Shown piece after piece: positions 77 to 31,457 of a stretch of 64,000 bases of DNA. The DNA is from Elusimicrobia bacterium GWB2_63_16 (GTDB lineage Bacteria > Elusimicrobiota > Elusimicrobia > Elusimicrobiales > UBA9959). Both the position numbers and the translations under genes were made by a program. The notes under the pieces are model-generated. The model ran no database searches. It saw nothing but the letters and a program-made list of their open reading frames with translations, and had not been told where the DNA came from. Numbering within the stretch: position 1 is the first letter of the stretch; each line of letters starts with the position of its first letter. The stretch is taken from contig MGTZ01000020.1 of NCBI GenBank assembly GCA_001799715.1, positions 1 through 64,000 of the forward strand, read 5' to 3'.

Positions 77-2521
77 TCAGTTCTGGGCGGCCAGCGCTTC
101 GAGCCGGCTGTTGAACCTTTCTATTATTATCCCCGACAGAGAATACAGTTCCTTTACCGCCGCGGCCGCCTCCGGGGGGAGATGCTTCTTCTCCGCGGCC
201 GCGAACAGGTCCATCAGGTAGTTCTGCAGGTGGAAGGTCAGGTCATGGGCGCCCAGGTCCCTGGCCGCCTTCATCAGGCTCAGCAGGGGGGCCAGCGCGG
301 CCTCGTCCTGGGCGGCCAGCGCCGCCGCGCCTACCCGGTTAGCCAGCGCCGCCGAAGCTTCTGGCGACGGGTCGAAGCCGGCCTCCAGGCCGGCGTCCTT
401 CAGGCGTCCGGCCAGGTGGGCCAGTTTGTCTATATCGCCGGGGGCGGCGGAGCGCAGGGCCCGGGTGAACACCACCTCGGCCGCCTGCCTGGCGTAGGCC
501 GCGGCCTGCGAGCGCAGCGGGGCCCAGGAAGAGGAAGTGCGGCCCGGCAGGCGGGACAGCAGGTAGAGGTAATCCTCGAGGATCTTGAAGATGGAGCCGG
601 CGTGGCTGTGCCGCGCGGCGTCGGCCAGGATCCAGGCGTAGAGGGTTTTCTCGTCCCAGGAGAAATCGTCGAAAGAGACCCGCGCGAAGCCGGGCTCTTT
701 CTCCAGGGCCGCGCGCATGTCCTCGGGGGAGGGGGAGGCGAAGAGCTCCTTCATGCGGGCGGTGGCCGAGGGCCGGGTAAAAAACATCGTCGGGAACTCG
801 GCGCCGCGGCGCAGGTAGCAGAAGGCCAGCGGGGAGTCGCCGTCGGGCCCGGGGGCGGCCACTTCGCCGCGCAGGTACAGCACGCCGTCGCGGCTCATGC
901 GTTCGTGCACGGTGACGGCCTCGAGCGAACCGGTCTCCTCCACGCCCAGCATCGCGTCGGCGATGATCAGCGCGGCCGCCTTCTGGCGCGCCAGGGCGTT
1001 CTCGCCTAGCAGCTCGCCGTAGATCTTCAGGCCGTCGCCGGCGTCCTGGAAATTGGAATGGGCCAGCTCCAGCAGCGACAGGAAAGGGCGGTCGGCGTTC
1101 TCGAAGCCCAGGTCGCGCAGCGTCTCGGCCACGCGGGCGGCATAGCGCAGGTTCTGCACGGCCTCTATGCGCGAGATGTCGGCGAAGAACCAGCCGCAGC
1201 TGGTGAACATGAACATCGCGTGCTTCTGCATCTCCAGCAGCTCCAGCGCGCGGGCCCGCTCGGCCTTGTTGAGCTCCCGCGAGGCGTGCTTTTGGAAAAA
1301 GGCCGCGGCGGCCTCCGGCGAGCGGTCCAGCAGCAGGCCGGCGTAAGCGTTGCGGGCCTCCCAGGGGGCGCGGAAGAACTTGGAGGCTTCGGAGGCGTAG
1401 ACGCCGGCGGCGGCGTCGCGCAGCGCGTTGAGCGCGGCCCTGAAAGGCAGGCGCCAGTTGAGGGAGCCGCCTTCGCCGCCGCAGTCGCAGCCGCCCTTCC
1501 AGCGGCGCACGCCGTGGGCGCAGCTCCAGGCCGTCCCTTCGCCGTCGGGGCCGGTCTTGATCATCACCTCGTCCGCGGGCGGGTTGCCTCGCAGGTATTC
1601 GCCGAAATTAACCACGCGGATGCCCCGGTTCCTGAGCTCGTGCAGGAAGGCGTGGGCCAGCGTCATGTCCGAGAACTTGTGATGGTGGCCGAAGGTCTCG
1701 CCGTCCACGGCCATACTGACGAGCTGCGGCCCCGCCTTGTTGGGCTTGAAGCAGGCCTCCACCCGGTCGGCGAAAACGCCGGAATCGCGCGTGAGGCCCT
1801 CGAAGGCGGCAGCTTTGGACAGCGGGCCGTCGTAGAAGAAGATTGCGATGGAACGGTCTTTGGCCGCGCCGGGTTGGGCGTCGCGCCACAGGTAGGGGCG
1901 CGTGGTGTCCAGGTCGCCGCGTGAGGCGTCGACCCACTCGCCGCCGGCGGGCCGCACCTTGTCGGCCTGGTAGGGTGAGAGGATCACGTACTTCATGCCG
2001 AGGTCGACGAGCAGGCGCAGCGTATCGTCGGAGGCCGCCGTCTCGGGCAGCCACATCGCCTCGGGCTTGAAGCCGAAGCGGTGCTCGAAATCCTTGATGC
2101 CCCACAGCGCCTGCGTCAACTGGTCCTGGAAAGAGGCCAGCGGCATGATCATGTGGTTGTAGCCCTGCGCTATGGCGTTGGAATGGCCGGTGCGCTCGCG
2201 CGAGTCGCGGGCGGCCCGCACGATCCTGGCGTAGTAAAAGGGGTAGTTCTTCTCCAGCCAGCCGAACAGCGTGGGGCCGAAGTTGAAGTTCATGTGCAGA
2301 TAATTGTTGGTCAGCTCCAGCACCCGGCCCCGGGCGTCGTTGACGCGGGCGCAGGCGTTGGGCAGGTAGCATTCGCGGGCGATGCGGGAATTCCAGTCGT
2401 GGAAGGGCCAGGCGGAGGGCTGCGAGTCTATGCGGCCGGTCCAGGGATTCTCGCGGGGAGGCTGGTAGAAATGGGCGTGCAGCGCGAAGTATTTTTCGTG
2501 TTTCCCGTGGGGCTTATCCAT
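77..2521 (-). CDS. GH57-family glycoside hydrolase (DUF3536 type)
   Basis: An 814-residue protein of glycoside hydrolase family 57, which acts on alpha-glucans (amylase, 4-alpha-glucanotransferase or branching-type reactions). The N-terminal HAHFYQPPRENPW is the GH57 region-1 signature, MWLPE near residue 157 fits the conserved region holding a glutamate, and AVDGETFGHHHKF fits the DGE/FGHH region. The C-terminal half, about residues 330-814, is helical and matches the layout of DUF3536-type GH57 proteins. There is no signal peptide, so it should be cytoplasmic and work on glycogen or imported maltodextrin. The start ATG is the only sensible one: no Shine-Dalgarno site precedes it, but TATAAT lies exactly 6 bases upstream. 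The precise reaction cannot be read from sequence. A secreted pullulanase at 49.5 kb is a plausible functional partner. Confidence 0.9.
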   Translation of the reverse strand: MDKPHGKHEKYFALHAHFYQPPRENPWTGRIDSQPSAWPFHDWNSRIARECYLPNACARVNDARGRVLELTNNYLHMNFNFGPTLFGWLEKNYPFYYARIVRAARDSRERTGHSNAIAQGYNHMIMPLASFQDQLTQALWGIKDFEHRFGFKPEAMWLPETAASDDTLRLLVDLGMKYVILSPYQADKVRPAGGEWVDASRGDLDTTRPYLWRDAQPGAAKDRSIAIFFYDGPLSKAAAFEGLTRDSGVFADRVEACFKPNKAGPQLVSMAVDGETFGHHHKFSDMTLAHAFLHELRNRGIRVVNFGEYLRGNPPADEVMIKTGPDGEGTAWSCAHGVRRWKGGCDCGGEGGSLNWRLPFRAALNALRDAAAGVYASEASKFFRAPWEARNAYAGLLLDRSPEAAAAFFQKHASRELNKAERARALELLEMQKHAMFMFTSCGWFFADISRIEAVQNLRYAARVAETLRDLGFENADRPFLSLLELAHSNFQDAGDGLKIYGELLGENALARQKAAALIIADAMLGVEETGSLEAVTVHERMSRDGVLYLRGEVAAPGPDGDSPLAFCYLRRGAEFPTMFFTRPSATARMKELFASPSPEDMRAALEKEPGFARVSFDDFSWDEKTLYAWILADAARHSHAGSIFKILEDYLYLLSRLPGRTSSSWAPLRSQAAAYARQAAEVVFTRALRSAAPGDIDKLAHLAGRLKDAGLEAGFDPSPEASAALANRVGAAALAAQDEAALAPLLSLMKAARDLGAHDLTFHLQNYLMDLFAAAEKKHLPPEAAAAVKELYSLSGIIIERFNSRLEALAAQN

Positions 2522-2527
2522 TGATAA

Positions 2528-2533
2528 ATTATA
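2528..2533 (-). promoter_or_regulatory. -10 box of a predicted leaderless promoter (GH57 gene)
   Basis: TATAAT on the minus strand is separated from the ATG by exactly six bases, which would put the transcription start on the A of the start codon. No ribosome binding site is visible and the -35 region is poor. Confidence 0.6.
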
Positions 2534-2576
2534 GTAAAGTGAAGCCGGTTCTAGAAGCGCAAAAGCCAGCCGCCGC

Positions 2577-3320
2577 TCAGGCGGCCGCGGCGAGCAGCAG
2601 CCTGGTCAGGGCCTCGTCGCAGGCCTCGGCGCCGCCGTAGCGCAGCGGGCCCAGGGGGCGGCCGGCCAGCAGGGCGGCCAGGCAGGCGCTGCCGGCGGCC
2701 GTGAAGGAGCGCGCGGCAACCTCGCCCAGCAGCTTGCGGAAATTCGCCTCGGAGGAGGGGGAAAGTTCCTTGCCCAGCGGAGAGAAATCCAGGTCTTCCG
2801 GCCTGAGCCGCAGGCGCAGCGGTCCCGGCCCGCCGATGATGTCGGCCAGCAAACGGGTTTCGCTCTCCGGGGCCGGGGACGGCGGCAGCGGGCGGCCGGC
2901 CAGCGCGTATAATCTTGAGAACAGCCCCGCCTTGAGGGCGGACAGGGTGGCTGGCTCGACAGGGCCCTCGTAGACCGCCGCCGCGATGACGGTCACCGAG
3001 GCGTAGGGAATGAAGAGGCGGCTGCCGGCCGCCGAGGCGTAAAAACCGTCGTCGGCGATCTCTATCTTTTCGGGGAATACGGCGGGAGGGAAAACCGGCA
3101 GGCCGGCCTCGGCCGCTATAATAACCGGAAAGCCGGCCGCCGCGGCGGCCTCGGCCAGCGCCCGGGCGTCGGCCAGCGGCAGGCGCCTGCCGAGGAAACC
3201 GGGGTTCGCGCGCAGGAAGGTTGCGGTTTCGTCCGCCGGCTTGCCGGCGGCGGTCAGCACCGGGGCGGCAGCCAGCGTGGGGGCCTGGATGGCCCTGAGG
3301 GCGACGGCGTACAGGCTCAC
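2577..3320 (-). CDS. Conserved hypothetical protein, coupled to cyuA
   Basis: A 247-residue Ala/Leu-rich protein starting with GTG, whose first four bases GTGA overlap the TGA of the cyuA gene, so it should be translationally coupled. The ORF track shows it only as the tail of a 655-residue ORF whose N-terminal half is an antisense-like shadow frame running through cyuA; the coupled GTG is the credible start. The sequence has an alpha/beta look: about residues 30-75 resemble a small domain that scores a residue range and a FPVIIAAEAG strand, followed by a beta segment with IPYASVTVIAAAVY. This pattern is reminiscent of uncharacterised bacterial proteins of unknown role. I do not recognise the family and assign no function. 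No signal peptide or membrane span is seen. Confidence 0.7.
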   Translation of the reverse strand: MSLYAVALRAIQAPTLAAAPVLTAAGKPADETATFLRANPGFLGRRLPLADARALAEAAAAAGFPVIIAAEAGLPVFPPAVFPEKIEIADDGFYASAAGSRLFIPYASVTVIAAAVYEGPVEPATLSALKAGLFSRLYALAGRPLPPSPAPESETRLLADIIGGPGPLRLRLRPEDLDFSPLGKELSPSSEANFRKLLGEVAARSFTAAGSACLAALLAGRPLGPLRYGGAEACDEALTRLLLAAAA

Positions 3321-4597
3321 GGCCGCTTGCGGGACATGATGTCGAGGATGATGCTGTCCACTTTCTCCATGCCCAGGCTGGAGATGCGCGAGATGTTCTT
3401 GATCGTTGCCTCGGCGCAGTTCCCGACGAAGCCTTCCGCGTCGGTGATGCCCTCGCCGTTGGAGGCCATCCAGGCGGCGCGGATGGCGGAGTCGGCCGAG
3501 GAGGCCACCTTGAGGGCGCAGCCGCTCTTGGCGCCGTCGCAGATCATGCCGCCGATGTCGCTGATCACCGTGTTGACGGCCAGCGCGGTCTTTTTGGCGT
3601 CTGCTCCGGAGCGCTGCCAGACTATGGCCACGGAGGCGCCCACGCCGGCGGCCACCGCGCAGCCGCAGATGGGCGCGAGCTCGCCGGTGAAGACCTTGAT
3701 ATAGGAATTTACCAGGTGGGACAGCGCTATGCTCCTGAGGATACGTTTTTCCGGCACGCCGAAGGCCTTGCCCACCAGCCAGGGCACCAGCACGGCCACC
3801 ACGCCCTGATTGCCGGACTCGCCGCTGGACATGACAGGAACGGACAAGCCGGCCATGCGCGCGTCGGCCGCGGCGGCGGCGGTGATCTTGGCGTCGGAGA
3901 GGATGTCGCGCTTGAGGTAGCCTTTCTTGATAAGGTCCTCTATGTAGTAGCCGACCTTCCTGAGTTTGAGCCCCTCGCGGGAGGCCGCGAGGTTCATGTC
4001 CACGCCGCGCCGTATATAGGTCAGCTCGGCGGGCTTGATCTTCTCTACGGCGCGGAACAGGTCGCGGAAAGTCGCTTTGCGCAGGGCCTGTTTGTAGGGC
4101 AGGGCGGCCTTTTTGCCGGGGCCGCCGGTTTTGATTATCGTGCGGCCGTTGAGTTTGAGCAGCGAGACCCGGTTGTGGCTGCCTTCGAGCACGCAAAGGG
4201 CCTTGTCCCGGCCGGCCGCCACCTCGGCGGCTATGTAGATGCCGCGTTTCTTGTAATCCACTTTTATGCCGGCCTTGCCGCTCTTGAGGAGGGCGGAAGC
4301 CTCCTTGAGCCGCGCCGGGGGGAGGCCTTTGAAGAGCTCCGCGCCGAGTTCGGGCTTGCGCGCCACGGCTCCTACGGCCGCGGCGAGCAAGTTGCCTTTC
4401 TGGCCGCTGGTGTTGGGGATGGCCACGGCCAGGCCGTTCTTGTAGGTGCCGGGGTCGGTGCGGACCAGCACCGAGGTGGTTTTGCCTTTCAGCAGCTTGC
4501 CGGCGGTGGCGGCGGCGAAAGCGACCGCTACGGGTTCGGTACACCCCATGGCGGGATACACTTCGTGTTTAAGGACTTCGGAAAGTAAATTTTTCAT
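3317..4597 (-). CDS. cyuA: L-cysteine desulfidase / UPF0597 family (CyuA/YhaM-like)
   Basis: A 426-residue member of the UPF0597 (serine dehydratase alpha-chain-like) family, whose characterised members are oxygen-sensitive Fe-S enzymes that break L-cysteine into pyruvate, ammonia and sulfide. The N-terminus carries the diagnostic MGCTEPVAVAFA, and further cysteines expected to hold the cluster occur in APICGCAVA and MICDGAKSGCALK. The length matches the family. The ORF in the track extends 68 codons further upstream, but that extension reads through a palindromic repeat; the ATG at MKNLLSEVL is the family start and has a weak purine-rich site (AAAGAGACGAG) before it. The gene overlaps a downstream unknown ORF by GTGA. 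The repeat lies in its leader, so it may influence expression. Cysteine breakdown rather than serine dehydration is inferred from family membership. Confidence 0.88.
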   Translation of the reverse strand: MKNLLSEVLKHEVYPAMGCTEPVAVAFAAATAGKLLKGKTTSVLVRTDPGTYKNGLAVAIPNTSGQKGNLLAAAVGAVARKPELGAELFKGLPPARLKEASALLKSGKAGIKVDYKKRGIYIAAEVAAGRDKALCVLEGSHNRVSLLKLNGRTIIKTGGPGKKAALPYKQALRKATFRDLFRAVEKIKPAELTYIRRGVDMNLAASREGLKLRKVGYYIEDLIKKGYLKRDILSDAKITAAAAADARMAGLSVPVMSSGESGNQGVVAVLVPWLVGKAFGVPEKRILRSIALSHLVNSYIKVFTGELAPICGCAVAAGVGASVAIVWQRSGADAKKTALAVNTVISDIGGMICDGAKSGCALKVASSADSAIRAAWMASNGEGITDAEGFVGNCAEATIKNISRISSLGMEKVDSIILDIMSRKRP

Positions 4598-4620
4598 AGT
4601 AGTGCTCGTCTCTTTATCGT

Positions 4621-4767
4621 GCCGACGGGGGCATGCCCTCTCCGGGTACGCCGGGCCACACCGTGGCCCGGCTCTTTCACACTGCGGTGTCGCTTCGCTC
4701 CACCCGGGCTCGGCGCTGCGCAAGCCTCGCCCTCGCGAGGCCCCTGCGAGGGCATACCCCCGCCGGC
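4621..4767 (+). repeat. Dispersed palindromic repeat, copy A
   Basis: A 147-bp element bounded by 20-bp inverted arms (GCCGACGGGGGCATGCCCTC and its near-complement) with two mismatches. Inside it are two smaller hairpins: GGGCCAC-ACC-GTGGCCC and GCCTCGC-CCTC-GCGAGGC. The core CTCGGCGCTGCGCAAGCCTCG recurs almost unchanged in copies B and C near 24.1-24.3 kb. It lies upstream of cyuA, in its presumed leader or promoter region. Confidence 0.85.
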
Positions 4768-4826
4768 GCTTAGTGACTTGAGGCGATATTGAAATCTGCA
4801 CCCGGGTCCGTGGTCGTGCGTGCCCT

Positions 4827-4852
4827 GTTTTAGGGATACACCTCGCTAAAAC
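4827..4852. repeat. Small AT-rich inverted repeat between cyuA and the MFS gene
   Basis: GTTTTAG and CTAAAAC form a perfect 7-bp inverted repeat with a 12-base spacer, just past the stop of the iron operon's MFS gene. There is no T-tract, so it could be a weak terminator for the iron operon or an operator in front of cyuA. The sequence does not decide between these. Confidence 0.4.
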
Positions 4853-4870
4853 AATACTAGATTACAATTT

Positions 4871-6067
4871 TTAGAAGGAGAATTTCCTGCTCCTCGTCCA
4901 GAGGAGGAGGGCGGCGGCGGAGAGCATTGCGCCGGCCGCGCCGGCCACGAAGGGGGCGGCGGGGGAGACCCGGTCCCAGAGGAAGCCGGCGGCGGCGCTG
5001 GAGGCGAAGGTGAGGAAGCCGAGCGTGCCCTGGAAGTAGCCCATGGCCGAGGCCCTGTTCTCGTCGGCGCTCAGATGCGAAACTACCGCTTTGGCTATGC
5101 CCTCGCTGAAGGCGCCGTAGAAACCGTACAGGGCGAACAGCAGCCAGACCTGCCACGGCCTGTCGGCCAGCGCGAAGCCCAGGTAGACGGCCGCGAAGAC
5201 GGCCAGGCCGAAGGTCATGGTCTTAAGTTTCCCCAGCCGGTCAGAGAGCCAGCCGGCCGGGGAGGCCAGCGCGGCGTAGACCAGATTATAGCCGGTATAG
5301 GCCAGGATGACGTGCGTGAGCGTGAACCCCATGGTCTTGGCCTTCATTATGAGGAAGACGTCGCTGGAATTGCCCAGCGCGAAGAGCGCGTAGATGGCGA
5401 GAAAGGCCTTGAAGTCTGCGGACATCGGCGCGGCCGGCGGGGCGCCCGCTCCGGCCGGGCGCGCGGCGGCCGCTTCCTTCACAAAATAGACCAGCACGCC
5501 GACGCCCAGCAGGGCGGGAACGAAAGCCGCCATGAAGATGAACCTGTAGTCAGGTTTTTCGGCGCCGAGGAAATGTATCAGGGCCAGCGCGGCCAGCGGG
5601 CCCAGTGCCGCGCCCAGGGTGTCCATCGCGCGGTGGAAGCCGAAGGCCTTGCCCCAGTGGGCCCTGTCCACCGAACCGGCTATCAGCGCGTCGCGAGCCG
5701 AGGTGCGCAGGCCCTTGCCGACGCGGTCGACGAAGCGCGAGAACAGCACGAACTGCCAGCCGCCCGCCAGGGCGAGCAGCGGCTTGGACACGGCCGAAAG
5801 GGAGTAGCCGGCGACGACAAAAGGTTTGCGCGCGCCATACCTGTCGGACAGGCGGCCGCCTATGATCTTGACGAAACTGGCCGTGGCCTCGGCCACGCCC
5901 TCTATGAGGCCCACCACCTGCATCGGCGCGCCGAGCACGGAGGTCAGGAAGACCGGCACGATGGGGTAGAGCATCTCGCTGGAGATGTCGGTGAGGCCGC
6001 TCACCACTCCCAGCAGGGTTACGTTGCGGGTCAGGCCCGCCCTCATGTCGCGAAAGAAGTTCTTCAT
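4871..6067 (-). CDS. MFS permease in the Feo operon
   Basis: A 398-residue major facilitator with about 12 hydrophobic segments. GGRLSDRYGARKP is the typical loop 2-3 motif and DRVGKGLRTSARDALIAGS matches a subfamily of bacterial MFS proteins often annotated as of unknown specificity. The ATG at MKNFFRDM overlaps the feoB stop as ATGA, so it is the third cistron of the dtxR-feoAB operon; the longer ORF in the track reads into feoB in another frame. Its place suggests a role in metal or metal-chelate traffic, possibly efflux, but the substrate cannot be told from sequence. Confidence 0.88.
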   Translation of the reverse strand: MKNFFRDMRAGLTRNVTLLGVVSGLTDISSEMLYPIVPVFLTSVLGAPMQVVGLIEGVAEATASFVKIIGGRLSDRYGARKPFVVAGYSLSAVSKPLLALAGGWQFVLFSRFVDRVGKGLRTSARDALIAGSVDRAHWGKAFGFHRAMDTLGAALGPLAALALIHFLGAEKPDYRFIFMAAFVPALLGVGVLVYFVKEAAAARPAGAGAPPAAPMSADFKAFLAIYALFALGNSSDVFLIMKAKTMGFTLTHVILAYTGYNLVYAALASPAGWLSDRLGKLKTMTFGLAVFAAVYLGFALADRPWQVWLLFALYGFYGAFSEGIAKAVVSHLSADENRASAMGYFQGTLGFLTFASSAAAGFLWDRVSPAAPFVAGAAGAMLSAAALLLWTRSRKFSF

Positions 6068-8465: not shown

Positions 8466-8467
8466 AT

Positions 8468-8502: not shown

Positions 8503-8515
8503 TCTAGCAAAATAG

Positions 8516-8540: not shown

Positions 8541-8541
8541 G

Positions 8542-8721: not shown

Positions 8722-8731
8722 ATGTTCTCCG

Positions 8732-10176: not shown

Positions 10177-10211
10177 CGTCTCCGGCTTGCCCGAAACGGC
10201 CGGCTAAATGT

Positions 10212-10217
10212 TATTAT
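10212..10217 (+). promoter_or_regulatory. -10 box of predicted leaderless promoter (rnd), shared AT island
   Basis: TGt-TATTAT is followed by exactly six bases and then the rnd ATG, with no ribosome site, predicting a leaderless message. The complementary strand reads ATAATA/TATAAT here and can serve as the -10 region for divergent rluE. Confidence 0.6.
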
Positions 10218-10223
10218 ATATTA

Positions 10224-11363
10224 ATGAGTTATACCTTCATCGACAAACAGAAAGATTTCAATGAGCTGTGCGCGAAGCTCGCCACCCATAAGTACCTCTC
10301 CATAGACACCGAGTCCAACAGCCTTTACGCCTACAAAGAAAAGTTCTGCCTGATGCAGCTGTCCAGCGAGCATATCAACGCCGTGGTGGACCCGCTCGCC
10401 GTGGACATCAAGCCGATACTCCCCATTTTCGCCGACCCCGGCATAGAGAAGATCTTTCACTCGGCCGATTCCGATATCCGCGTTTTTAAGGCCGCGCTCA
10501 AGTGCACCTTCGTCAATATCTTCGACGTGATGGTGGCCGCCAAGTACCTGGGCATCATCAAGTGCGGCCTGGACAGCATGGTGGGAGAATACTTCGGCCT
10601 GGAGATGAATAAGAAGTTCCAGAAGGCCGACTGGGGCCGGCGCCCGCTCACGAAAGAGATGCTGGACTACGCCAGCTCCGACACCATCCACCTCAAGAAG
10701 CTGCGCGACATTCTTGGCGCCGAACTGGAGAAGAAGGGCCGCCTGGAAGAGGCGCTGGGGCAGTTCGCCCAGATCTGCAAGATCGAGCCCAACCCCATGC
10801 GCTTCGACGAGTCGGGGTTCCTTACGCTCAAGGGCGCGCGCCAGCTCAACGGCCGCGGCTTGGCGGTACTGCGCGAGCTGTACATCGGGCGCGAGGTGGC
10901 GGCGATCAAGAAGGACGCGCCGCCTTTCAAGGTTATCAGCGAGGACCTGATGCTGCGCCTTTCGGTGGCGCCGCGCGAGGGTCTGCACAACCTCTCTATT
11001 TTTAAGGGCGTCAGCGGCTACGTGCTGGCCAATCACGGCGCGTGGATACGCGAGGCGCTGGCCAAGGGGCTCAAGGCCCCGGAGTACCAGGTGCCCCGCC
11101 GCGAGATCTCGCGAGAGAAGCGCGCCTATTTCGAGACCGTCAAGAACCGCTTCAAGACGCTGCGCCTGTGGCGCAAAGAGACAGCCGCCCGCCGCAACAT
11201 GCTGCCCGAGGCCATCTTGGGCAACGACGTGCTGGAGCGCCTGGCCATGGCGCAGCTGCACAAAATAGAGGACCTGCACGCCATCAAGGGCCTGGGCGCG
11301 GAAAAGGCTTCCCTCTACGGCGCCGAAATAATGGAATTCCTGAAAAAACACCACGGCAAATAA
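10224..11363 (+). CDS. rnd: Ribonuclease D
   Basis: A 379-residue 3'-5' exoribonuclease of the DEDDy class, acting in tRNA 3'-end maturation. The exonuclease domain (about residues 1-165) has SIDTESNSL (Exo I), FHSADSDIRVF (Exo II) and YASSDTIHL (Exo III). Two HRDC-like helical domains follow, about residues 195-275 and 300-375, ending in a helix-hairpin-like IKGLGAEKASLYG. The length is normal for RNase D. The stop TAA abuts the left repeat of the RAYT element, which therefore sits directly in its 3' end. A 377-residue antisense ORF covers nearly the whole gene and is a codon-bias shadow. Confidence 0.95.
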   Translation: MSYTFIDKQKDFNELCAKLATHKYLSIDTESNSLYAYKEKFCLMQLSSEHINAVVDPLAVDIKPILPIFADPGIEKIFHSADSDIRVFKAALKCTFVNIFDVMVAAKYLGIIKCGLDSMVGEYFGLEMNKKFQKADWGRRPLTKEMLDYASSDTIHLKKLRDILGAELEKKGRLEEALGQFAQICKIEPNPMRFDESGFLTLKGARQLNGRGLAVLRELYIGREVAAIKKDAPPFKVISEDLMLRLSVAPREGLHNLSIFKGVSGYVLANHGAWIREALAKGLKAPEYQVPRREISREKRAYFETVKNRFKTLRLWRKETAARRNMLPEAILGNDVLERLAMAQLHKIEDLHAIKGLGAEKASLYGAEIMEFLKKHHGK

Positions 11364-11488: not shown

Positions 11489-12205
11489 ATGCCAAGGCTT
11501 GCAAGAGTTGTGGGGGTGGGATTGCCGCATCATATTGTGCAGCGCGGAAATTGCCGGCAAAGGGTCTTTGAAAGCGAATACGACAGGGAATACTATCTGC
11601 GTCTGATCTCCGAATGCTCGAGCCGGGCGGGCCTTTCAATATTGGCCTACTGCCTTATGACGAATCATGTGCATTTTATAGCTATTCCGAAGAAGAAGGA
11701 TTCCATGGCCCGCACATTCAATAGCGCTCATATGCGCTATTCTCAATACTTCAATTACAAACATAAACTGATAGGACACTTATGGCAGGGGCGGTATTTC
11801 TCCTGTGTTCTCGACGAAAAGCATCTCATAGCGGCTGCCAGGTACGTGGAGCGTAATCCGCTGCGTGCGGCGCTGGTCGGCTCGGCTGAAAATTGGAAAT
11901 GGTCGAGCGCCGCGGTTCATTGCGTGAGAGCAGGCGATCCGTTCGGCTTTTCTCTGGATAGCCTGCTGGAAATACTGGGGTTGAGCGGTAGAGGCTGGAG
12001 GGAACTGCTGGATGAGGCGCAGGCTGAAACGGAAATTTCTGAAATACGCGCACATACCAGCGTAGGGCGCCCGCTGGGGAATAAGAGCTTCCTCGCGGGT
12101 ATCGAAAAGAGATTAGGGAGGAGGGTTGGGGCTATGCCCCCGGGGCGCCCCAAAGGGACCAAACAGGGCGCTGTCCCTAGTTATAAAATAGGGCGCTGTC
12201 CCTAG
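11489..12205 (+). CDS. REP-associated tyrosine transposase (Y1_Tnp / IS200-like)
   Basis: A 238-residue single-strand-DNA transposase. MPRLARVVGVGLPHHIVQRG is the classic N-terminus, CLMTNHVHFIAIP contains the HUH metal site, and YVERNPLRAALV with the downstream W..S..V block is typical of RAYT proteins. The expected catalytic tyrosine lies in the region around ARYVERNP. The last 13 codons read straight through the first right-hand repeat and stop within the second, so the original C-terminus may have been shorter or the repeats arrived later. Codon use and GC differ from neighbours, pointing to acquisition. These proteins move or copy REP elements and are usually single-copy and domesticated. 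Confidence 0.93.
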   Translation: MPRLARVVGVGLPHHIVQRGNCRQRVFESEYDREYYLRLISECSSRAGLSILAYCLMTNHVHFIAIPKKKDSMARTFNSAHMRYSQYFNYKHKLIGHLWQGRYFSCVLDEKHLIAAARYVERNPLRAALVGSAENWKWSSAAVHCVRAGDPFGFSLDSLLEILGLSGRGWRELLDEAQAETEISEIRAHTSVGRPLGNKSFLAGIEKRLGRRVGAMPPGRPKGTKQGAVPSYKIGRCP

Positions 12206-12226: not shown

Positions 12227-13996
12227 CTATTTAAGCAGCTTTTTCGCCAGGTCCGGGCGCTTGATCTCGCGCAGGGCCTGCAGGACGAGGGAGCGGTTTT
12301 CGGGTTTGTAATACTGAAGGAGCGCGCGCTGCAGGCGCCGCTCCGTTTCTTTTTTGGGGACGTAGACGGGCTCGAGGGTGAAGGGGTCGAGGCCGGTGAA
12401 GTAGATGGAGGTCGCCAGTTCCATCGGCGCGGGCAGGAAGTCGTTGATCTGCTGCGGGCGGATGTTGCGCTCCTTCAGGAACACGGCCAGGTCGGCCATG
12501 TCGGCCAGCGTGGAGCCGGGGTGGGCCGAGATGAAATAGAGCACCAGGTACTGCTCCTTGCCGGCTTTCTTCGACTCGGCGAGGAACTTGTCGGCGAACT
12601 CCTTGAACACTTCCACGGCGGGCTTCTTCATCACCGACAGCACCTTGGGAGAGATATGCTCGGGGGCGACCTTGAGCAGCCCGCCGGTGTGAAAACGCGC
12701 AATTTCCGAAATATACTCGCCGCATTTCAGCGCCAGGTCCATCCTGATGCCGCTGGCCACGAAAGCTTTCTTCAGACCCTTGATCGCCCGCACGCGGCGC
12801 ATCAGCGCCAGCAGCGGCTTATGGTCGGTATTGAGGTTGGGGCAGATGACGGGGTGGACGCAGGAAAGCTTTTTGCAGGCCCTGCAGACCGCCATATCCT
12901 TGCCGCCCATGGCGTACATGTTGGCCGACGGGGCGCCCAGGTCCGAGATATTGCCGGGGTGGCGCGGCGTCTTCAACAGGGCCGCGGCTTCCTTCTCCAC
13001 CGACTCCGCCGAGCGCGTCTGTATGAACCGGCCCTGGTGCAGCGTCAGCGAGCAGAAGGCGCAGCCGCCGAAGCAGCCGCGGTGTATGACTATCGAATCC
13101 TTTATGGTCTCCAGAGCGGGAATTGGTTCTTTATACGACGGGTGGGCGCGCTTGGCGAAGGGCAGGCCGTAGACGGCGTCCATCTCCGCCGTGGAGAGGG
13201 GGAGCGCGGGGGGATTCTGTACCACCGCCTTACCCTCGCTCTTCTGGACCAGGACCGCGGCGTTGTAGGGATTGGAGTTCTCGTAAATAAGCCGCGTCGC
13301 GGCGGAGAATTTTACGCGGTCGCCTGAAACTTCTCCGGCGGAGGGCAGCTCCACGGAGCCGGGCAGCGGCAGGGCGGCGGCTTCTTTGGCCCCGAGAGGG
13401 TAGGCGGTGCCGCGGACGTCGCGCAGCGCGCTTATCTTTTCGCCGGTCTTCAGCCTGGCGGCGATCTCGCGGATCTGGCGCTCGCCCATGCCGTACACCA
13501 GCAGGTCGGCCTTGGAGTCCAGCAGCACGCTGTGCCGCACCTTGTCGGACCAGTAGTCGTAATGCGCGAAGCGCCGCATGCTGGCCTCTATGCCGCCTAT
13601 GACCACCGGCGCGTCGGGATAGGCCTCGCGGCAGCGCTGCGAGTAGATGATGGTGGCGCGGTCGGGGCGCAGGCCGGCGCGCCCGCCGGGGGAGAAATCG
13701 TCGGAGGAACGCACGCGGCGGTTGTGCGTGTACTTGTTGATCATCGAGTCCATGTTCCCGGCGGAGACGCCGTAGAACAGGCGGGGTTTCCCGAATTGTC
13801 TGAAATCGGCCGGCGAATCCCAGCGCGGCTGGGCCAGGATGGCCACGCGCAGGCCCTCGGCTTCCAGCACGCGCCCTACCAGGGCCATGGCGAAAGAGGG
13901 ATGGTCGACATAGGCGTCGCCCGTGACCAGGACCACGTCCACGGCGTCCCAGCCCAGGGCTTTGACCTCTTGCGGCGTCGCGGGAAGGAAACTCAT
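12227..13996 (-). CDS. ygiQ: YgiQ-family radical SAM protein
   Basis: A 589-residue protein with an N-terminal cobalamin-binding-like fold ([20 protein letters not shown]) and a radical SAM core carrying CFGGCAFC, the CxxxCxxC motif for the 4Fe-4S cluster and SAM. Further cysteines in [17 protein letters not shown] may hold a second cluster. The C-terminal part has [20 protein letters not shown], a family hallmark. The gene is widespread but its substrate is unknown. There is no Shine-Dalgarno site; TGa-TATGAT lies six bases before the ATG, suggesting a leaderless transcript. Its 3' end faces the RAYT element. Confidence 0.95.
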
Positions 13997-14002: not shown

Positions 14003-14008
14003 ATCATA
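14003..14008 (-). promoter_or_regulatory. -10 box of predicted leaderless promoter (ygiQ)
   Basis: Extended -10 TGA-TATGAT on the minus strand, then exactly six bases (TACAGT) before the ATG. No ribosome binding site. Confidence 0.6.
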
Positions 14009-23981: not shown

Positions 23982-24045
23982 CGCTTGTCTCCGCGCGGAG
24001 CGAAGCCAAGTGGTGTTCGGGGATGGGGGTTTCAGGCACGGAGAA

Positions 24046-24171: not shown

Positions 24172-24237
24172 TGCCGTTGTCCTGCAGTAGTCCGCCTCAT
24201 GTGGCCACACAAGAGCATATGTGGAGGGGCGGATTGA

Positions 24238-24354
24238 CCAGCGGATGGGTTCGGAAGGCCCTCACGGAGGCCGAGGCTTGCGAAGCGCCGAGGCCGAGTG
24301 AGGAGGGGCGAGCACGGTGTGCGAGACCCCGTGCCTGACGGGCCCATCCGTTGG
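24238..24354 (-). repeat. Dispersed palindromic repeat, copy C (inverted, diverged)
   Basis: CGAGGCTTGCGAAGCGCCGAG is the complement of the copy-B core with one change, and CACGGTGTG matches the complementary CACACCGTG hairpin. Outer arms CCAGCGGATGGG and CCCATCCGTTGG pair over 12 bases with one wobble. Arms differ in sequence from A and B but keep pairing. Confidence 0.7.
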
Positions 24355-24442
24355 GCAAGCCGCCTGCCCGTACGGTAAGCCGCCAAAAGCCAGATACGAC
24401 AAGATGGCAGCGTTCGTCGGCGGTCTTGCCGGGGAAATGATG

Positions 24443-24775
24443 TTAGAAACGGCGGAAGGTGACGGTGGGGGAGGCGCCGAGGGAGAGGAATTTGAAGAGC
24501 AGGTAGAAGACCAGGGCGCCCAGCAGCAGGAGCGGGATGCCGATGATGGCGCCGATGACGGTGGAGGTCAGCAGCGCGCCGGAGACCAGCAGGGCGAAAC
24601 CCAGCAGGGCCAGGCCGGCGGCTATCAGGGCCTTCAGCCGGGCCAGCAGGCCGGGCGGCTGCGGCGGGGGGACTGGCCCCGGCCGCGGGCCGGAAGCGCG
24701 CGGGCCCTGGCCGCCGGGGCTGACGAGCTCCGGCTCCACGCACTCTTCGCTGACCGCCAGGCGGCGTTCTTCCAT
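24443..24775 (-). CDS. Small predicted inner-membrane protein
   Basis: A 110-residue protein with a Pro-rich cytoplasmic-like N-terminal part (residues 1-45) and two adjacent hydrophobic segments, LIAAGLALLGFALLVSGALL and VIGAIIGIPLLLLGALVFYLL, forming a membrane hairpin. I do not recognise a family. It has no Shine-Dalgarno site, but TGG-TAAAAT stands six bases before the ATG, in the same geometry as four other genes here, which supports this being a real gene. It is divergent from the FN3 gene at 24846. Confidence 0.7.
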   Translation of the reverse strand: MEERRLAVSEECVEPELVSPGGQGPRASGPRPGPVPPPQPPGLLARLKALIAAGLALLGFALLVSGALLTSTVIGAIIGIPLLLLGALVFYLLFKFLSLGASPTVTFRRF

Positions 24776-24781
24776 AGATAG

Positions 24782-24787
24782 ATTTTA
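24782..24787 (-). promoter_or_regulatory. -10 box of predicted leaderless promoter (110-aa membrane gene)
   Basis: Extended -10 TGG-TAAAAT on the minus strand, six bases (CTATCT) before the ATG; no ribosome site. Confidence 0.55.
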
Positions 24788-24823
24788 CCAAAACGACGCA
24801 ACAAATCCGTCATACCACGCGTT

Positions 24824-24829
24824 TATAAT
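24824..24829 (+). promoter_or_regulatory. -10 box of the first surface cluster
   Basis: TATAAT, 16 bases before the ATG of the FN3 protein, leaving room for a short leader with GCAGGTG as ribosome site. No good -35 hexamer is seen. Confidence 0.5.
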
Positions 24830-24845
24830 GTAAGCAGGTGAAAAC

Positions 24846-25823: not shown

Positions 25824-25825
25824 TT

Positions 25826-28800
25826 ATGACCCCGACCAAGGCCTCAACATCGAACCTGCTGCTGGCGCCCGCGCTGCTGCTGTGCCTTGCGGGCGCGGCC
25901 TACGCCGTGCCGGCCAACCCGCGCGCCGCCGCGGTGGCGCAGGCCGACGGCTCCACGGTGACGGTGCGGCTGCGCGGCGACGAGTATCATCACTGGCACG
26001 AGGACCGGGACGGCTATACAGTGCTCAAGGACAAGGCCGCCAGGACCTGGTTTTACGCGGAGAAGGCCGGCGACGGCTCGCTGCGGCCGGGCGCCCACCG
26101 CGTAGGTTCGGTAGAGCCGGATAAAGCGGGCTTTAAGAAGGGGCTGCGGGACGACAGGCGCGTCAAAGCCGGGGCCGAGCGCCGCCGGCGCGACGAAGCC
26201 GCCAGGCGCGCGCGCGCCTCCGCCTCGCCTTTAAGGGTTTCCTCGGTCCTGGGCGGGCAGGCTTCCGCTATAGCGCCGTCCGCCGCGCAGCCGGCCCGCG
26301 CGCCCATACTGACCGGCACTATGAAGAACCTGGTGATACTGGCCAGGTTCTCCGACCAGGCCGCCACGCACAGCCAGACCTCTTTCAATAACCTCTTCAA
26401 CCAGGTGGGCTACAATCTCGACGGCGCCGTCGGTTCCGTAAAAGACTATTTTCTGGAGACGTCCTACGGCAATCTGACGGTGCAGTCCGTGGTGACGGCC
26501 TGGGTGACGCTGCCGCAGAACCAGGCCTATTACGGCGCCAACGACGTGGACGGTTACGACTTGCGGCCGCGCGAGATGGTGCGCGACGCCATCAACGCGC
26601 TGGAAGCTTCCGGTTTCGACTTCAGCCAGGCGGACGGCAACGGCGACGGCGAGGTGGACGGCCTGACCGTCATCCACTCCGGCTTCGCCGAAGAGTATAC
26701 GGATAACCCGACGGATGCCATATGGTCCCACCAGTGGGAACTGATAACCCCGCTCACCTACGACGGGGTCAGGATGGAGGCCTATCATACCGAGGCGGAG
26801 ATACGCGGCTGGAGCGACACGCCCTCGTCCCAGGGCATCTCCCGCATCGGCGTCATCTGCCACGAGACCGGCCATTTTCTGGGGCTCCCCGACCTTTACG
26901 ACACCACGTACAACAGCAACGGCGTAGGCAGTTTCTGCCTGATGAGCGGCGGCTCCTGGAACGGCGCGGACGAGGACGGCGCCTCCCCGGCCCACCTGAG
27001 CGCCTGGCCCAAGAAAAACCTGGGCTGGGCCGCGGCCACGCAGCTTACGACGATAGGCACCAAGTCGCTGGGCCGCATAGCCGCGGACCCCGCCGCGCTG
27101 TACCTGCTGCGCGACGCGGCCTTCCCGGCCTCCGAATATTTCCTGATAGAGAACCGGCAGGGCTACGGCTTCGACGCCTACCTGCCCGGCTCCTCCCGCG
27201 GCCTGCTGGTGTGGCATGTCGACGAGTCGATGGCGGGTAACGACAACCCCGCCCATTACAAAGTGGACCTGGAAGAGGCCAGCGGCACGCAGCACCTTAC
27301 GGCCGCCTACAACAGCTATACGATCGGAGACGACGCCGACTATTACCGGGCGGGCAATAATACCGATTTTACGGACGCTACGGCTCCCAACAGCATAAGT
27401 TACTCCGGCCAGAACCTGAAGCTGCCCATCAGCGCGGTGTCCGCCACCGGCGCGGAGATGACTTTCTACCTGGGCACCACCGACGTCACGCCGCCGGCCG
27501 CCGTGGCCGCCGTCTACGACGGCCTGACCACCGGCAGCGACATCGCCACCACGGGCTCGCTGACGCAGCTCTCCGCCAACTGGCCGGCTTCGGCCGGCGA
27601 CCCCGAGACCGGCCTGGCCGGCTACTACTACGCCATCGGCACCGCGCCGGGCGGCACCAACGTGGCGGACTGGACCTCCAACGGCCTCTCCCTGTCCGTA
27701 ACCCGCTCCGGCCTCACGCTTACGCCGGGCCAGATCTACTATTTCAGCGTCAAGGCGATGAGCGGCGTCGGCGTGTTCTCCGCCGAAACCCGTTCCAACG
27801 GCCAGACCGTGGACACGCAGTCCCCTTCCGACGTGGCCTACGTTCACGACGGTACGGAGGGAGACATAGATTACGTGCGCTCCCTGACCACGCTCTCGGC
27901 CTACTGGCCGGAGTCGCCCTCCGAGAACATAGACCGCTACGAGTACGCCATCGGCACCACGCCGGGCGGCACGCAGACCGCGGGCTGGACCAGCGTGGGC
28001 ATGAACACCTACGTGACGCGTGCCGGCCTGGGGCTGGCGCAGGCCACCACCTATTATTTCTCGGTGCGGGCTCACAACACCGGCGGTTTCTACTCCACGC
28101 CTACCGCTTCCGACGGCCAGAAGACGGACACCATAAGCCCTTCGGCCAAGGTGGAGATCGCCACGGCGCTGCCGGCCCGGACAGGCATTTTTACGGCCAA
28201 ACTGATAGTTACCGAGGCCAACCCGCTGCCGACCGCACCGCAGTTGCGTTTCGTCACGTCCACCGGGCGCATAGTTCCGCTGACGCTTACTTTCCTGACC
28301 GGGTCCACTTGGACAGCCTCCGGGTACATAGAATCTTACCTCTCCACCGGCACGGCCTCCTTCCAGTTCGCCGCGGCCGACGCGGCGGGGAATAACGGCA
28401 CCTCAATCACTTCCGGCGTTACTTTTACGATAAACTACGCCCTGGACGGGGCCTCCGGCGGCTCGGTGTACAACAGCGACGGCTCGGGCATAACGCTGCC
28501 GGCCGGGGCCTACCTGGGGACCATCCTCCTTTCCGTTTCCACCGCGCCGGCGGCGGCGCTGGCGGGGCCCGACGCCTCTTCGCCGGACTCTTTCAAGATC
28601 TACGGCTACGACCTGGCGCGCGACTTTTCCGCCCGGACCACCGCCGGCGCGCCCGTTACGACTTTCGCCGCGCCGGTGACGATCACCCTGGGCTACCCGG
28701 ACGCCGATAACGACGGCCGGATAGACATGGACCTGATAGAGGAGTCCAAAGCCTGGATCTACTACCTGGACACCGCCGCCGGCCGCTGGACCCCGGTGCC

Positions 28801-29185
28801 CGGCGTCACGCGCGACGCCGGGGCCAACACCCTTTCCGCCCAGGTGGCGCATTTCTCGGTCTACTCGGTCAGGGCCGCCGGCGACGCCGGTCCCGGCATC
28901 GGCGAGCTGCGGGCCTACCCGAACCCCTGCGACCTGCGGACCGCCTCCTCGCTGACCATAGACGGCGTCCCCATAGACGCCGTCGGGACCAGGGCCTATA
29001 TTTTCAATTCAGCCGGCGAACTGGTGCGGGAGCTGACGCGCTCCGACGGCGTGAACGCGCTGAACGCGATTTCCTGGAACGGGCGCGACAAGAGCGGCGC
29101 CAGGGCGGCCAGCGGGCTGTATATCTACGTGGTCAAGACGGACAACAGGGGGAAGGGCAGCGGCAAGTTCTTCCTGGTCTGGTAA
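25826..29185 (+). CDS. Secreted M6-family metalloprotease with FN3 and FlgD-like C-terminal domain
   Basis: A 1119-residue exported zinc protease. The signal peptide is followed by a propeptide-like region with DEYHHWHEDRDGYTVLKD, often seen N-terminal in M6 proteases. The catalytic site VICHETGHFLGLPDLYD (first His about residue 346) is the HExxHxxGxxD-type site of the immune-inhibitor-A family. Two tandem FN3 repeats lie at about residues 555-770, each with YYYAIGTAPGGT / YEYAIGTTPGGT and YYFSV. The C-terminus (AYPNPCDLRTA ... SGLYIYVVKT) has the layout of FlgD-Ig / type-A sorting domains. It is followed three bases later by a PorV-like barrel gene, which suggests a secretion pairing. It may degrade extracellular protein. 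Confidence 0.93.
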   Translation: MTPTKASTSNLLLAPALLLCLAGAAYAVPANPRAAAVAQADGSTVTVRLRGDEYHHWHEDRDGYTVLKDKAARTWFYAEKAGDGSLRPGAHRVGSVEPDKAGFKKGLRDDRRVKAGAERRRRDEAARRARASASPLRVSSVLGGQASAIAPSAAQPARAPILTGTMKNLVILARFSDQAATHSQTSFNNLFNQVGYNLDGAVGSVKDYFLETSYGNLTVQSVVTAWVTLPQNQAYYGANDVDGYDLRPREMVRDAINALEASGFDFSQADGNGDGEVDGLTVIHSGFAEEYTDNPTDAIWSHQWELITPLTYDGVRMEAYHTEAEIRGWSDTPSSQGISRIGVICHETGHFLGLPDLYDTTYNSNGVGSFCLMSGGSWNGADEDGASPAHLSAWPKKNLGWAAATQLTTIGTKSLGRIAADPAALYLLRDAAFPASEYFLIENRQGYGFDAYLPGSSRGLLVWHVDESMAGNDNPAHYKVDLEEASGTQHLTAAYNSYTIGDDADYYRAGNNTDFTDATAPNSISYSGQNLKLPISAVSATGAEMTFYLGTTDVTPPAAVAAVYDGLTTGSDIATTGSLTQLSANWPASAGDPETGLAGYYYAIGTAPGGTNVADWTSNGLSLSVTRSGLTLTPGQIYYFSVKAMSGVGVFSAETRSNGQTVDTQSPSDVAYVHDGTEGDIDYVRSLTTLSAYWPESPSENIDRYEYAIGTTPGGTQTAGWTSVGMNTYVTRAGLGLAQATTYYFSVRAHNTGGFYSTPTASDGQKTDTISPSAKVEIATALPARTGIFTAKLIVTEANPLPTAPQLRFVTSTGRIVPLTLTFLTGSTWTASGYIESYLSTGTASFQFAAADAAGNNGTSITSGVTFTINYALDGASGGSVYNSDGSGITLPAGAYLGTILLSVSTAPAAALAGPDASSPDSFKIYGYDLARDFSARTTAGAPVTTFAAPVTITLGYPDADNDGRIDMDLIEESKAWIYYLDTAAGRWTPVPGVTRDAGANTLSAQVAHFSVYSVRAAGDAGPGIGELRAYPNPCDLRTASSLTIDGVPIDAVGTRAYIFNSAGELVRELTRSDGVNALNAISWNGRDKSGARAASGLYIYVVKTDNRGKGSGKFFLVW

Positions 29186-29188
29186 TTT

Positions 29189-30238
29189 ATGAAACTAGCG
29201 GCAGCGGTCATAATCGCTTTGTTCTCCGCCGCCCCGGCCTCGGGCGGGGCGGGAGGCGACGCGCTGCCATTTCTGAAACTGGACGCCGGGGCGCGCGGCG
29301 CCGCCATGGGCGGGGCCTACTGCGCCGCAGGCGACGACGCGCTGAGCGTGTTCTACAACCCGGCCGGCCCGGCTTTGGCCGAGCGGAAGGAAGTTTTGGT
29401 GGGGCATAACGAGTGGCTGCAGGAGATGCGCAACGAGTCCGCCGCCTATGTGCACCCGCTGGGGGCCCGGCTGACGCTGTTCGGCGGCGCGAACCTGCTG
29501 CTCTCCGGTAGCATGGATAAATACGACGCGGCCGGAGCGCGTACCGGCTCTTTCAGCGCCCTGGAGGGCGTCGTGTCGGCCGGCGCCGCTGCCGCGCTCG
29601 GGCGGGAGTTCTACGGCGGCGCCGCGTTAAAGTTCCTGACCCAGCGCGCCGACGGCCTGAGCGCCAGCGCCTGGGCCGGGGACGCCGGACTGCTGAAGGC
29701 GTTCGGCGATTGGCGCGCCGGCGTCTCCGCGGCTAATTTCGGCTCGGCCCTCAAGCTGGGCTCGCGCAGTTTCCCGCTGCCGCTGGTGCTGCGCGCGGGC
29801 ATCTCCCGGTCTTTCCTGGGCAATTTCCTGGCCGCCGCCGAGGCGGTAAAGGCCGGCGGCTCCGACGCGGCCGCGGCGCTGGGAGCGGAGGCCCGCCTTA
29901 CGGCGGGGCCGCAGGAATATTTTTACTTCAGGGGCGGCTACAAGACGGGCCGCAGCAGCTACGCCGGCACCGGCTTCTCGGCTGGCATCGGGCTCACCAA
30001 CAGGGACCTGCGCGTGGATTACGCCTTCGCGCCGTACGGCGAACTCGGGGACGCCCACCGCGTTACCGTGGCGCTGAGTTTCGGGGCGGCCCGGCCGGAC
30101 GAGGCCAGGCGCAGGCCTTTCGGCGGCCTGCCGCCGCGGGCGGTGAAAAAGGCCGCTCCGGGGCGCCAGGGCGGCACCAAAGCGCCGCCGGAGAAGAAGC
30201 GGTCCGAAGAGAAAGAGGAAGTTTACTTTATGTGGTAG
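29189..30238 (+). CDS. PorV/PorQ-family outer-membrane beta-barrel protein
   Basis: A 349-residue protein with a signal peptide and the characteristic opening FLKLDAGARGAAMGGAYCAAGDDALSVFYNPAG, split here into the GARGAAMGGAY and VFYNPAG blocks that define the family. Amphipathic strands fill the rest. The tail from about residue 295 is basic and Pro/Lys-rich, ending YFMW, an extension beyond the barrel. PorV proteins shuttle cargo with C-terminal sorting domains in type IX secretion; whether this one does is unproven. It directly follows the M6 protease with such a domain. Its 3' end overlaps the convergent glycosyltransferase gene by 11 bases. Confidence 0.85.
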   Translation: MKLAAAVIIALFSAAPASGGAGGDALPFLKLDAGARGAAMGGAYCAAGDDALSVFYNPAGPALAERKEVLVGHNEWLQEMRNESAAYVHPLGARLTLFGGANLLLSGSMDKYDAAGARTGSFSALEGVVSAGAAAALGREFYGGAALKFLTQRADGLSASAWAGDAGLLKAFGDWRAGVSAANFGSALKLGSRSFPLPLVLRAGISRSFLGNFLAAAEAVKAGGSDAAAALGAEARLTAGPQEYFYFRGGYKTGRSSYAGTGFSAGIGLTNRDLRVDYAFAPYGELGDAHRVTVALSFGAARPDEARRRPFGGLPPRAVKKAAPGRQGGTKAPPEKKRSEEKEEVYFMW

Positions 30239-31445
30239 GGCGGGGCGCCAGCAGATCCGCCCATAGCGCGGCGGTTTTCGAAAGTTCGAAATCCGCCGCT
30301 CTTCTTTTGCCCGCGGCGGCGTAGACCCTGAGCGCGGCGGGCGCGCGGAGCAGCTCTCCCAGCTCGGCCGCCCAGGCTTGTTCGGCAGCTTCGAGCGGGG
30401 CGGAGGGGCCGCGGCGGGCGCCGGAAAGGGGCGGCATCAGTATGCCGTACTCGGCCCGCTCCGGCGCCGCGGCGCGGCCTGCCGGCAGCGAGGCTGGCGC
30501 CAGCAACTCGCGGGGGCCGGAATCGCAGTCGGCGGAGATAACGGGCGCCCCGGAGGCCATGGCCTCCAGCAGGGCGTTGGGGAAACCTTCCCAGAGAGAA
30601 GTGAAAGCGAAGAGCCGGGACCGGGAGACGAACATATGCGGGTTCGGCCGGTAGCCGGCGAAATAGACGTCGGCGTCGGGCGGGGGAGCGCCGGGGCCGG
30701 CGAAAGCGCGCAGCCCCAGGCCGCGGCACAGGTCCAGCAGGTATTTCTCCAGCTCGCCCTCGCCCAGGAAGACCAGCGCCGCGCCGGGCAGGTCCTTGGA
30801 AAGTTCGCGGAATATCCTCAGCAGATGCCAGTGGCCTTTGGCCGCCGTAAGCCTGCCGCCGGTAACAATAGACGGCCGCTCAAAGACCCGGGCCCACTCC
30901 GGCGGCAGCGGGGCCGCGGCCAGGCGGGCTATGCCGGCCGTATCGCAGCCGTTGGGGACCAGCGCCAGCTTCTCTTCCGGCACGGAAAAATTCTCAAGCA
31001 GGTCGCGCCTGACGCCCAGCGAATTGGCTGCCACCAGCGCGGCGCGCGGGTAGTAGCGGCGTATCAGGGGCCGCATCAGCGCGCCGCGCAGTCCCGAGAA
31101 TTCTCCCGAGGGGCTGGTGCGCTCGCAGATCACGGCCCGGTGCCCGCTGCGGGCGGCGGCCACCACGTTGACTATGTTGGCTCGCTCCATGAACGAGAGC
31201 ACGGTGTCGCCGGGGCCGGTCTGGGCGGCCAGGCGGCGCGCGTAGAGGGGGATGCAGGCGGTCTTGAGCAGGGAGGAGGTGGCGGCCCTGTGGTCCGACA
31301 GTATGAGCGGCCGCCGCGGCAGCGGCAGCGCTACTTCGTCCTCCAGGAGGATGATGTCGTCGTGCGGGAGCAGGGCCGACAGGGCGGCGAACTGCTTTTC
31401 GGCGCCGCCGCGGAACAGCGAATTTATCAGGAGCTTCAGGCCCAT
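30228..31445 (-). CDS. GT4-type glycosyltransferase
   Basis: A 405-residue GT-B fold glycosyltransferase. The N-terminal domain begins with LLINSLFRGGAEKQ, and the C-terminal domain has IVTGGRLTAAKGHWHLL and SLWEGFPNALLEAMASGAPVI, which includes the nucleotide-sugar-binding E-x7-E motif. It probably builds lipopolysaccharide or exopolysaccharide; donor and acceptor are unknown. There is no Shine-Dalgarno site; TAGAAT lies exactly six bases before the ATG, suggesting a leaderless transcript. It is not linked to other polysaccharide genes, which is unusual. Confidence 0.9.
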   Translation of the reverse strand: MGLKLLINSLFRGGAEKQFAALSALLPHDDIILLEDEVALPLPRRPLILSDHRAATSSLLKTACIPLYARRLAAQTGPGDTVLSFMERANIVNVVAAARSGHRAVICERTSPSGEFSGLRGALMRPLIRRYYPRAALVAANSLGVRRDLLENFSVPEEKLALVPNGCDTAGIARLAAAPLPPEWARVFERPSIVTGGRLTAAKGHWHLLRIFRELSKDLPGAALVFLGEGELEKYLLDLCRGLGLRAFAGPGAPPPDADVYFAGYRPNPHMFVSRSRLFAFTSLWEGFPNALLEAMASGAPVISADCDSGPRELLAPASLPAGRAAAPERAEYGILMPPLSGARRGPSAPLEAAEQAWAAELGELLRAPAALRVYAAAGKRRAADFELSKTAALWADLLAPRPTT

Positions 31446-31451
31446 AAGCCA

Positions 31452-31457
31452 ATTCTA
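31452..31457 (-). promoter_or_regulatory. -10 box of predicted leaderless promoter (glycosyltransferase)
   Basis: TAGAAT on the minus strand, followed by TGGCTT (six bases) and the ATG. No ribosome site. Confidence 0.55.

What the first reader, a model, noticed from the sequence alone, without database searches (positions are those of the whole stretch)
2519..31457. A leaderless-mRNA promoter register shared by at least five genes
Seen directly: the GH57 gene (TATAAT), rnd (TATTAT), ygiQ (TATGAT), the glycosyltransferase (TAGAAT) and the 110-residue membrane gene (TAAAAT) each have a -10-like hexamer followed by exactly six bases and then ATG, and none has a Shine-Dalgarno site. Three of the five also have TGn before the hexamer. 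In standard sigma-70 geometry this places transcription start on the A of ATG. Weaker matches at slightly different spacing occur before the M1-M28 gene (N7) and the DUF4015 gene (N8), and TGGAAT-N6 before the LUD gene. Other genes here have strong AGGAG sites, so two start modes appear to coexist. Leaderless genes are known in some phyla; that this applies here is inference.
Basis: partly seen in the sequence, partly recalled or inferred. Interest (0 to 1): 0.78.

Follow-up and report, generated by a model that had tools for sequence, protein, structure and literature searches.

The report
Leaderless-gene promoters across an Elusimicrobiota order
In this uncultured Elusimicrobiota bacterium and its relatives, some 7% of genes carry the promoter's -10 box exactly six bases before the ATG, so their messenger RNA most likely begins at the start codon itself; this mode is known from other bacteria, but I found no earlier report for this phylum.

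Summary
In detail: all five hexamers, the N6 spacing, the lack of Shine-Dalgarno sites and three TGn are as described. The register is genome-wide. In 1.19 Mb of the same genome, 58 of 298-300 ATG genes with no SD that are not inside operons have TAnnnT ending exactly 6 bases before ATG (about 9 at other distances; 6.9±2.6 in dinucleotide shuffles; P about 4e-27). Whole genome: TAWAAT-N6-ATG 104, against N4 13 and N3 11.

Orthologues of the five genes in same-genus relatives keep TAnnnT at N6/N7 in 34 of 51 cases, although sequence further upstream is only 25-35% identical. SD-led genes use the same promoter element but never closer than 16 bases, and tend to have a purine at the N6+1 position. 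That places transcription start on the A of ATG.

The host belongs to Elusimicrobiota, order Elusimicrobiales. The excess is strong in its genus and clear in another family of the order (26 of 26 genomes), weak elsewhere in the phylum.

Most likely: leaderless transcription from -35-poor, AT-block/extended -10 promoters, roughly 150-200 genes per genome, coexisting with SD initiation. The kind is known (Deinococcus, Actinobacteria); the taxon and promoter description appear new. No transcript data exist.

The parts
2528..2533 (-). -10 box TATAAT, N6 before ATG (2521-2519) of the GH57/DUF3536 gene 77-2521(-)
   Evidence: orthologues N6/N7 in 8 of 10
10212..10217 (+). -10 box TATTAT preceded by TGT, N6 before ATG of rnd-like gene 10224-11363(+)
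   Evidence: orthologues mostly N7/N8
14003..14008 (-). -10 box TATGAT preceded by TGA, N6 before ATG of YgiQ-type radical SAM gene 12227-13996(-)
   Evidence: N6 kept in 8 of 11 orthologues
24782..24787 (-). -10 box TAAAAT preceded by TGG, N6 before ATG of the 110-aa gene 24443-24775(-)
   Evidence: N6/N7 in 9 of 9 orthologues
31452..31457 (-). -10 box TAGAAT, N6 before ATG of glycosyltransferase gene 30228-31445(-)
   Evidence: N6 in 4 of 10 orthologues
49444..49449 (-). TAAAAT preceded by AAATTG, N8 before ATG of DUF4015 gene 48311-49435(-): same element, leader of 0-2 nt expected
   Evidence: not part of the N6 peak
52767..52772 (+). TGGAAT at N6 before ATG of LUD-domain gene 52779-53417(+), probably a degraded -10; orthologue in G009 has TAAAAT-N6

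Best explanation
These are housekeeping-type promoters whose -10 hexamer lies so close to the gene that RNA polymerase starts on the A of the ATG, giving leaderless mRNAs. The element reads about A-W-W-T-(T/G)-n-TATAAT with little or no -35, followed by six bases and ATG. Such mRNAs would be translated without an SD, presumably by direct recognition of the 5'-terminal AUG by ribosomes carrying initiator tRNA. In the same genome other genes use the same promoter element about 16-45 bp upstream, most often about 29-36, with an SD. Shown by sequence: motif, exact register, genome-wide excess, conservation, exclusion of SD, order-wide occurrence. Inferred: the transcription start, the leaderless translation, and recognition by the housekeeping sigma factor.
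For: Distance histogram: N6 58 against neighbours of about 9, in 300 ATG, non-operon, no-SD genes; 0 of 180 in SD genes; 7 of 5922 internal ATGs. Shuffles 6.9±2.6, max 15 of 200; Poisson 4e-27. Forms that are not stop codons (TATnnT) peak too, 30 against about 4, so it is not a first-start-after-a-stop artefact. Whole genome N6 104, N4 13, N3 11, reversed N6 17. Orthologues: 34 of 51 keep TAnnnT at N6/N7, with sequence further upstream only 25-35% identical. State agreement own against G009: both 4, one only 5 and 4, neither 54, P = 0.009. Replicated in G009, G042 and G014 and by pattern in 26 of 26 genomes of family f2. SD-led genes (n=188) have no TA[ATG]AAT closer than 16 bp and show a purine 7 bases after the hexamer in 40 of 51 (background 0.61, P = 0.007). 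In 28 of 63 N6 genes the hexamer is itself an in-frame stop, and downstream SD-preceded starts are not enriched (2 of 63).
Against: No RNA data. The purine signature weakens in a wider promoter set (62%; YR step 36% against 24%, P = 0.016). Starts were called by a home-made codon model. Agreement with more distant genera is not significant except G014 (P = 0.04). The true 5' end could lie 1-3 nt either side of the A.
Confidence: 0.88

Rival explanations
1. Very short leaders: the same promoters, but start sites scattered over 1-5 nt around the ATG, so the mRNAs have tiny 5' UTRs rather than exactly none.
For: An excess also exists at N7-N9 (+11, +4, +10 TAnnnT). Orthologues drift to N7/N8. DUF4015 is N8.
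Against: The N6 excess (+55) dwarfs the others. The purine preference in SD-led promoters sits at N6+1.
Confidence: 0.08
2. AT-rich S1-binding or unstructured ribosome-landing sequence upstream of non-SD genes, not a promoter at this position.
For: Non-SD genes in many bacteria have AT-rich sequence upstream, which PMC5397173 partly attributes to S1.
Against: A one-base register of TAnnnT, with defined bases 1, 2 and 6 and a GC-rich stretch just upstream, is not expected of S1 sites. The same element lies farther up at SD genes.
Confidence: 0.03
3. Artefact of start calling: starts picked just after in-frame stops (TAA/TAG) create TAnnnT at in-frame distances.
For: 28 of 63 N6 hexamers carry an in-frame stop.
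Against: TATnnT, not a stop, peaks at N6 just as sharply. Frame-matched N3 and N9 do not peak. Whole-genome pattern counts need no gene calls.
Confidence: 0.01

Closest known systems
Deinococcus-Thermus '-10-motif adjacent to ORF' leaderless genes (PMC12340547; Zheng et al. 2011, PMC3160421)
   Same: TANNNT about 6-7 bp before the ATG, coexisting with GGAG-type SD genes in a GC-rich genome; no -35 needed in many cases
   Different: About one third of genes in D. radiodurans, roughly 7% here. Here the hexamer is closer to TATAAT and is preceded by an AT block. Different phylum. Transcription evidence exists there, none here.
Actinobacterial leaderless transcripts (Mycobacterium, Streptomyces; PMC3898074, PMC4895711)
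   Same: TAnnnT just before the start codon; leaderless and SD modes in one genome
   Different: About 20% of genes in Actinobacteria (PMC3160421); GTG starts are a minority here (6 of 64). Not experimentally mapped here.
Extended -10 promoters lacking a -35
   Same: T at -15 and partly G at -14; no consistent -35
   Different: G only 33%; the stronger feature is a 4-5 bp A/T block at -18 to -15. TTGA at 17 bp spacing occurs in about 7%.

Membership tests
Leaderless bacterial genes (TA-led class of Zheng et al. 2011) | TA-like -10 signal about 10 bp upstream of the start (hexamer ending 6-7 bp before it), enriched over background | tested here: met
   N6 peak 58 against about 9; shuffles 6.9; whole genome 104 against 11-13
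Leaderless bacterial genes | No SD upstream of these genes | tested here: met
   SD-like sequence in 1 of 64 N6 genes, about 40% of all genes; the register partly excludes SD by position
Leaderless bacterial genes | mRNA 5' end at the start codon | not testable with these tools
   No transcriptome held; only an indirect ruler, purine at N6+1 in SD-led promoters
Leaderless bacterial genes | Start codon truly at the N6 ATG | tested here: met
   Orthologue N-termini align from residue 1 in most cases; in-frame stop in the hexamer in 28 of 63; no excess of downstream SD starts
Extended -10 (TGn) promoters | TG one base before the hexamer | tested here: inconclusive
   T 70%, G 33% at the two positions; three of five window genes
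Promoters with -35 | TTGACA-like hexamer 16-18 bp upstream | tested here: not met
   TTGA at 17 bp in 5 of 68; no general -35

The most novel reading that the evidence does not exclude
An order-wide leaderless mode in Elusimicrobiota, not previously reported for the phylum, built on promoters that lack a -35 and instead carry an A/T block directly before the -10. The distance from -10 to ATG alone would decide whether a gene is leaderless or SD-led.
Probability: 0.7. Interest if true: 0.5.

Novelty: new member of a known kind. Interest (0 to 1): 0.42.

Why it matters
It adds a lineage, mostly known from metagenomes, to the bacteria using leaderless transcription, with an internal ruler that predicts start sites base by base. 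Gene annotation can use the N6 register to fix starts. The distribution (strong in Elusimicrobiales, weak elsewhere in the phylum) and the drift of orthologues between N6, N7, N8 and SD modes make gain and loss of leaderless initiation traceable. Any cultured member of the order would allow a direct test.

Tried and rejected
Secreted proteins use SD and cytosolic ones leaderless, as the window suggests: rejected, hydrophobic N-termini 30/63 against 82/188, P = 0.66. Stop-codon start-calling artefact: rejected. Hidden downstream SD start: rejected. A purine-at-+1 signature in all promoter-like sites: only weak, so the result from SD-led genes is given as moderate support. Rfam found nothing in the window. 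For low-GC genomes the N4 control is out of frame; the frame-matched N3 control was added.

Full report
What was checked. The five genes were read directly. All have a -10-like hexamer ending exactly six bases before ATG, no Shine-Dalgarno (SD) site, and TGn in three (rnd, ygiQ, 110-aa gene). Pfam confirms the names given, except that the 110-aa protein has no hit. Of the weaker cases, DUF4015 (TAAAAT-N8) and LUD (TGGAAT-N6) are as stated; the M1-M28 gene has no TAnnnT at N7.

Host. Relatives of a window protein are Elusimicrobia metagenome-assembled genomes, the closest at 90% identity (HGW-Elusimicrobia-3). The window lies in a 2.87-Mb draft genome, 66% GC in the window. Sampled relatives in the phylum carry an intact anti-SD, CACCTCCTT; the own genome's 16S end was not found by that pattern.

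Genome-wide test. I took 1.19 Mb of the same genome in stretches and called about 1000 genes with a codon model that uses no upstream signal. In 300 ATG genes without SD that are not inside operons, TAnnnT ends at N6 in 58, N7 in 18, and about 9 at other distances. Among SD genes it is 0 of 180; among internal in-frame ATGs 7 of 5922. Dinucleotide shuffles give 6.9±2.6, maximum 15 in 200, and the Poisson P against other distances is about 4e-27. The strict form TA[ATG]AAT gives 34 at N6 against 1.6. Whole-genome pattern counts, which need no gene calls, give TAWAAT-N6-ATG 104, N4 13, N3 11, N6 reversed 17. Summing the excess over N6-N9 gives about 80 in a sample of 966 genes (N6 alone about 55); counting N6 and N7 this is about 7% of genes and about 12-15% of genes that head a transcription unit. 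Scaled to the genome it is roughly 150-200 genes. Five in the window is ordinary for this genome (P = 0.22).

Promoter anatomy. The 64 N6 sites show TAtAAT preceded by A/T at -18 to -15 (T at -15 70%, G at -14 33%) and a GC-rich stretch at -21 to -27. There is no general -35; TTGA at 17 bp spacing occurs in 5 of 68. SD-led genes have the same element, never closer than 16 bp to ATG, most often 29-36. In those, where no ATG imposes a base, the position seven bases after the hexamer is a purine in 40 of 51 (P = 0.007). This is an independent ruler for the start site and coincides with the A of ATG at N6 genes. In a wider, noisier set the signature is weaker.

Conservation. In same-genus orthologues of the five genes, leaving out the nearly identical sister, sequence 21-60 bases upstream is 25-35% identical, near chance. 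Yet 34 of 51 have TAnnnT at N6 or N7, and pooled counts peak at N6 (25), N7 (9), N8 (7). ygiQ shows TATGAT, TATCAT, TATTAT, TACTAT and TACAAT, all at N6. Some relatives lack it (the GT gene in several, ygiQ in G006, G011 and G002), so the mode appears to be gained and lost. Reciprocal best hits with G009 give both 4, one only 5 and 4, neither 54, P = 0.009; with G014 P = 0.04; with other genera not significant.

Distribution. The gene-level N6 peak recurs in G009 (11 of 52), G042 (36% GC; 16 of 54) and G014 (another family; 10 of 47), and weakly in G040 and G057. By whole-genome pattern, N6/N4 is 6.6 in the genus, 1.66 in family f2 (26 of 26 genomes), 1.0-1.3 in most other families. Against the frame-matched N3 and its reversed control the odds are 6.7, 2.35 and 1.2-1.3. 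The other classes were not examined gene by gene.

Alternatives. Start-calling bias is excluded because TATnnT (not a stop) peaks at N6 (30 against about 4). A true start downstream is unlikely (2 of 63 with SD). S1-type AT-rich sites do not predict a one-base register. Very short rather than absent leaders remain possible for N7-N9 genes.

Known work. Zheng et al. 2011 (PMC3160421) found TA-led leaderless genes in 207 of 953 bacterial genomes and do not list Elusimicrobia (one genome is 'unclassified'). In Deinococcus the -10 motif 6-7 bp before ORFs is shown to work as a promoter (PMC12340547). A paper citing GeneMarkS-2 says 21.6% of bacterial species are predicted to use leaderless transcription (PMC9581028), so a tabulated prediction for an Elusimicrobium may exist. 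Searches for Elusimicrobia with leaderless, SD or promoter terms returned nothing on the point. The kind is known; the taxon and promoter description appear new.

Verdict. Observation confirmed, interpretation supported, transcript ends still to be measured.

Noticed in passing
window 11489-12205 (+): ORF between rnd and ygiQ with low third-position GC (0.59 against about 0.88 for neighbours); its N-terminus looks like a REP-associated (Y1-type) transposase, from memory and not searched; probably acquired.
   Followed up: no
G000 C4:59206-60174 (-) and C57:20823-21767 (+): Two separate reading frames (411 and 434 aa) each with four S1-domain matches, rather than one six-domain S1; might bear on non-SD initiation.
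   Followed up: no
L126 (rnd orthologue in G010): The rnd orthologue has one in-frame TGA, and its -10-like TATCAT lies at about N9.
   Followed up: no
window 53524 (+) and 40837 (+): TATAAT at N10 and TATCAT at N11 to N13 before these genes suggest very short leaders of about 4-6 nt, a class between leaderless and SD-led.
   Followed up: partly
N6 genes genome-wide: The two bases after the hexamer are T-rich in N6 genes (T 54%) but less so in SD-led promoters (T 37%, P = 0.008), perhaps helping to fix the start on the A.
   Followed up: partly
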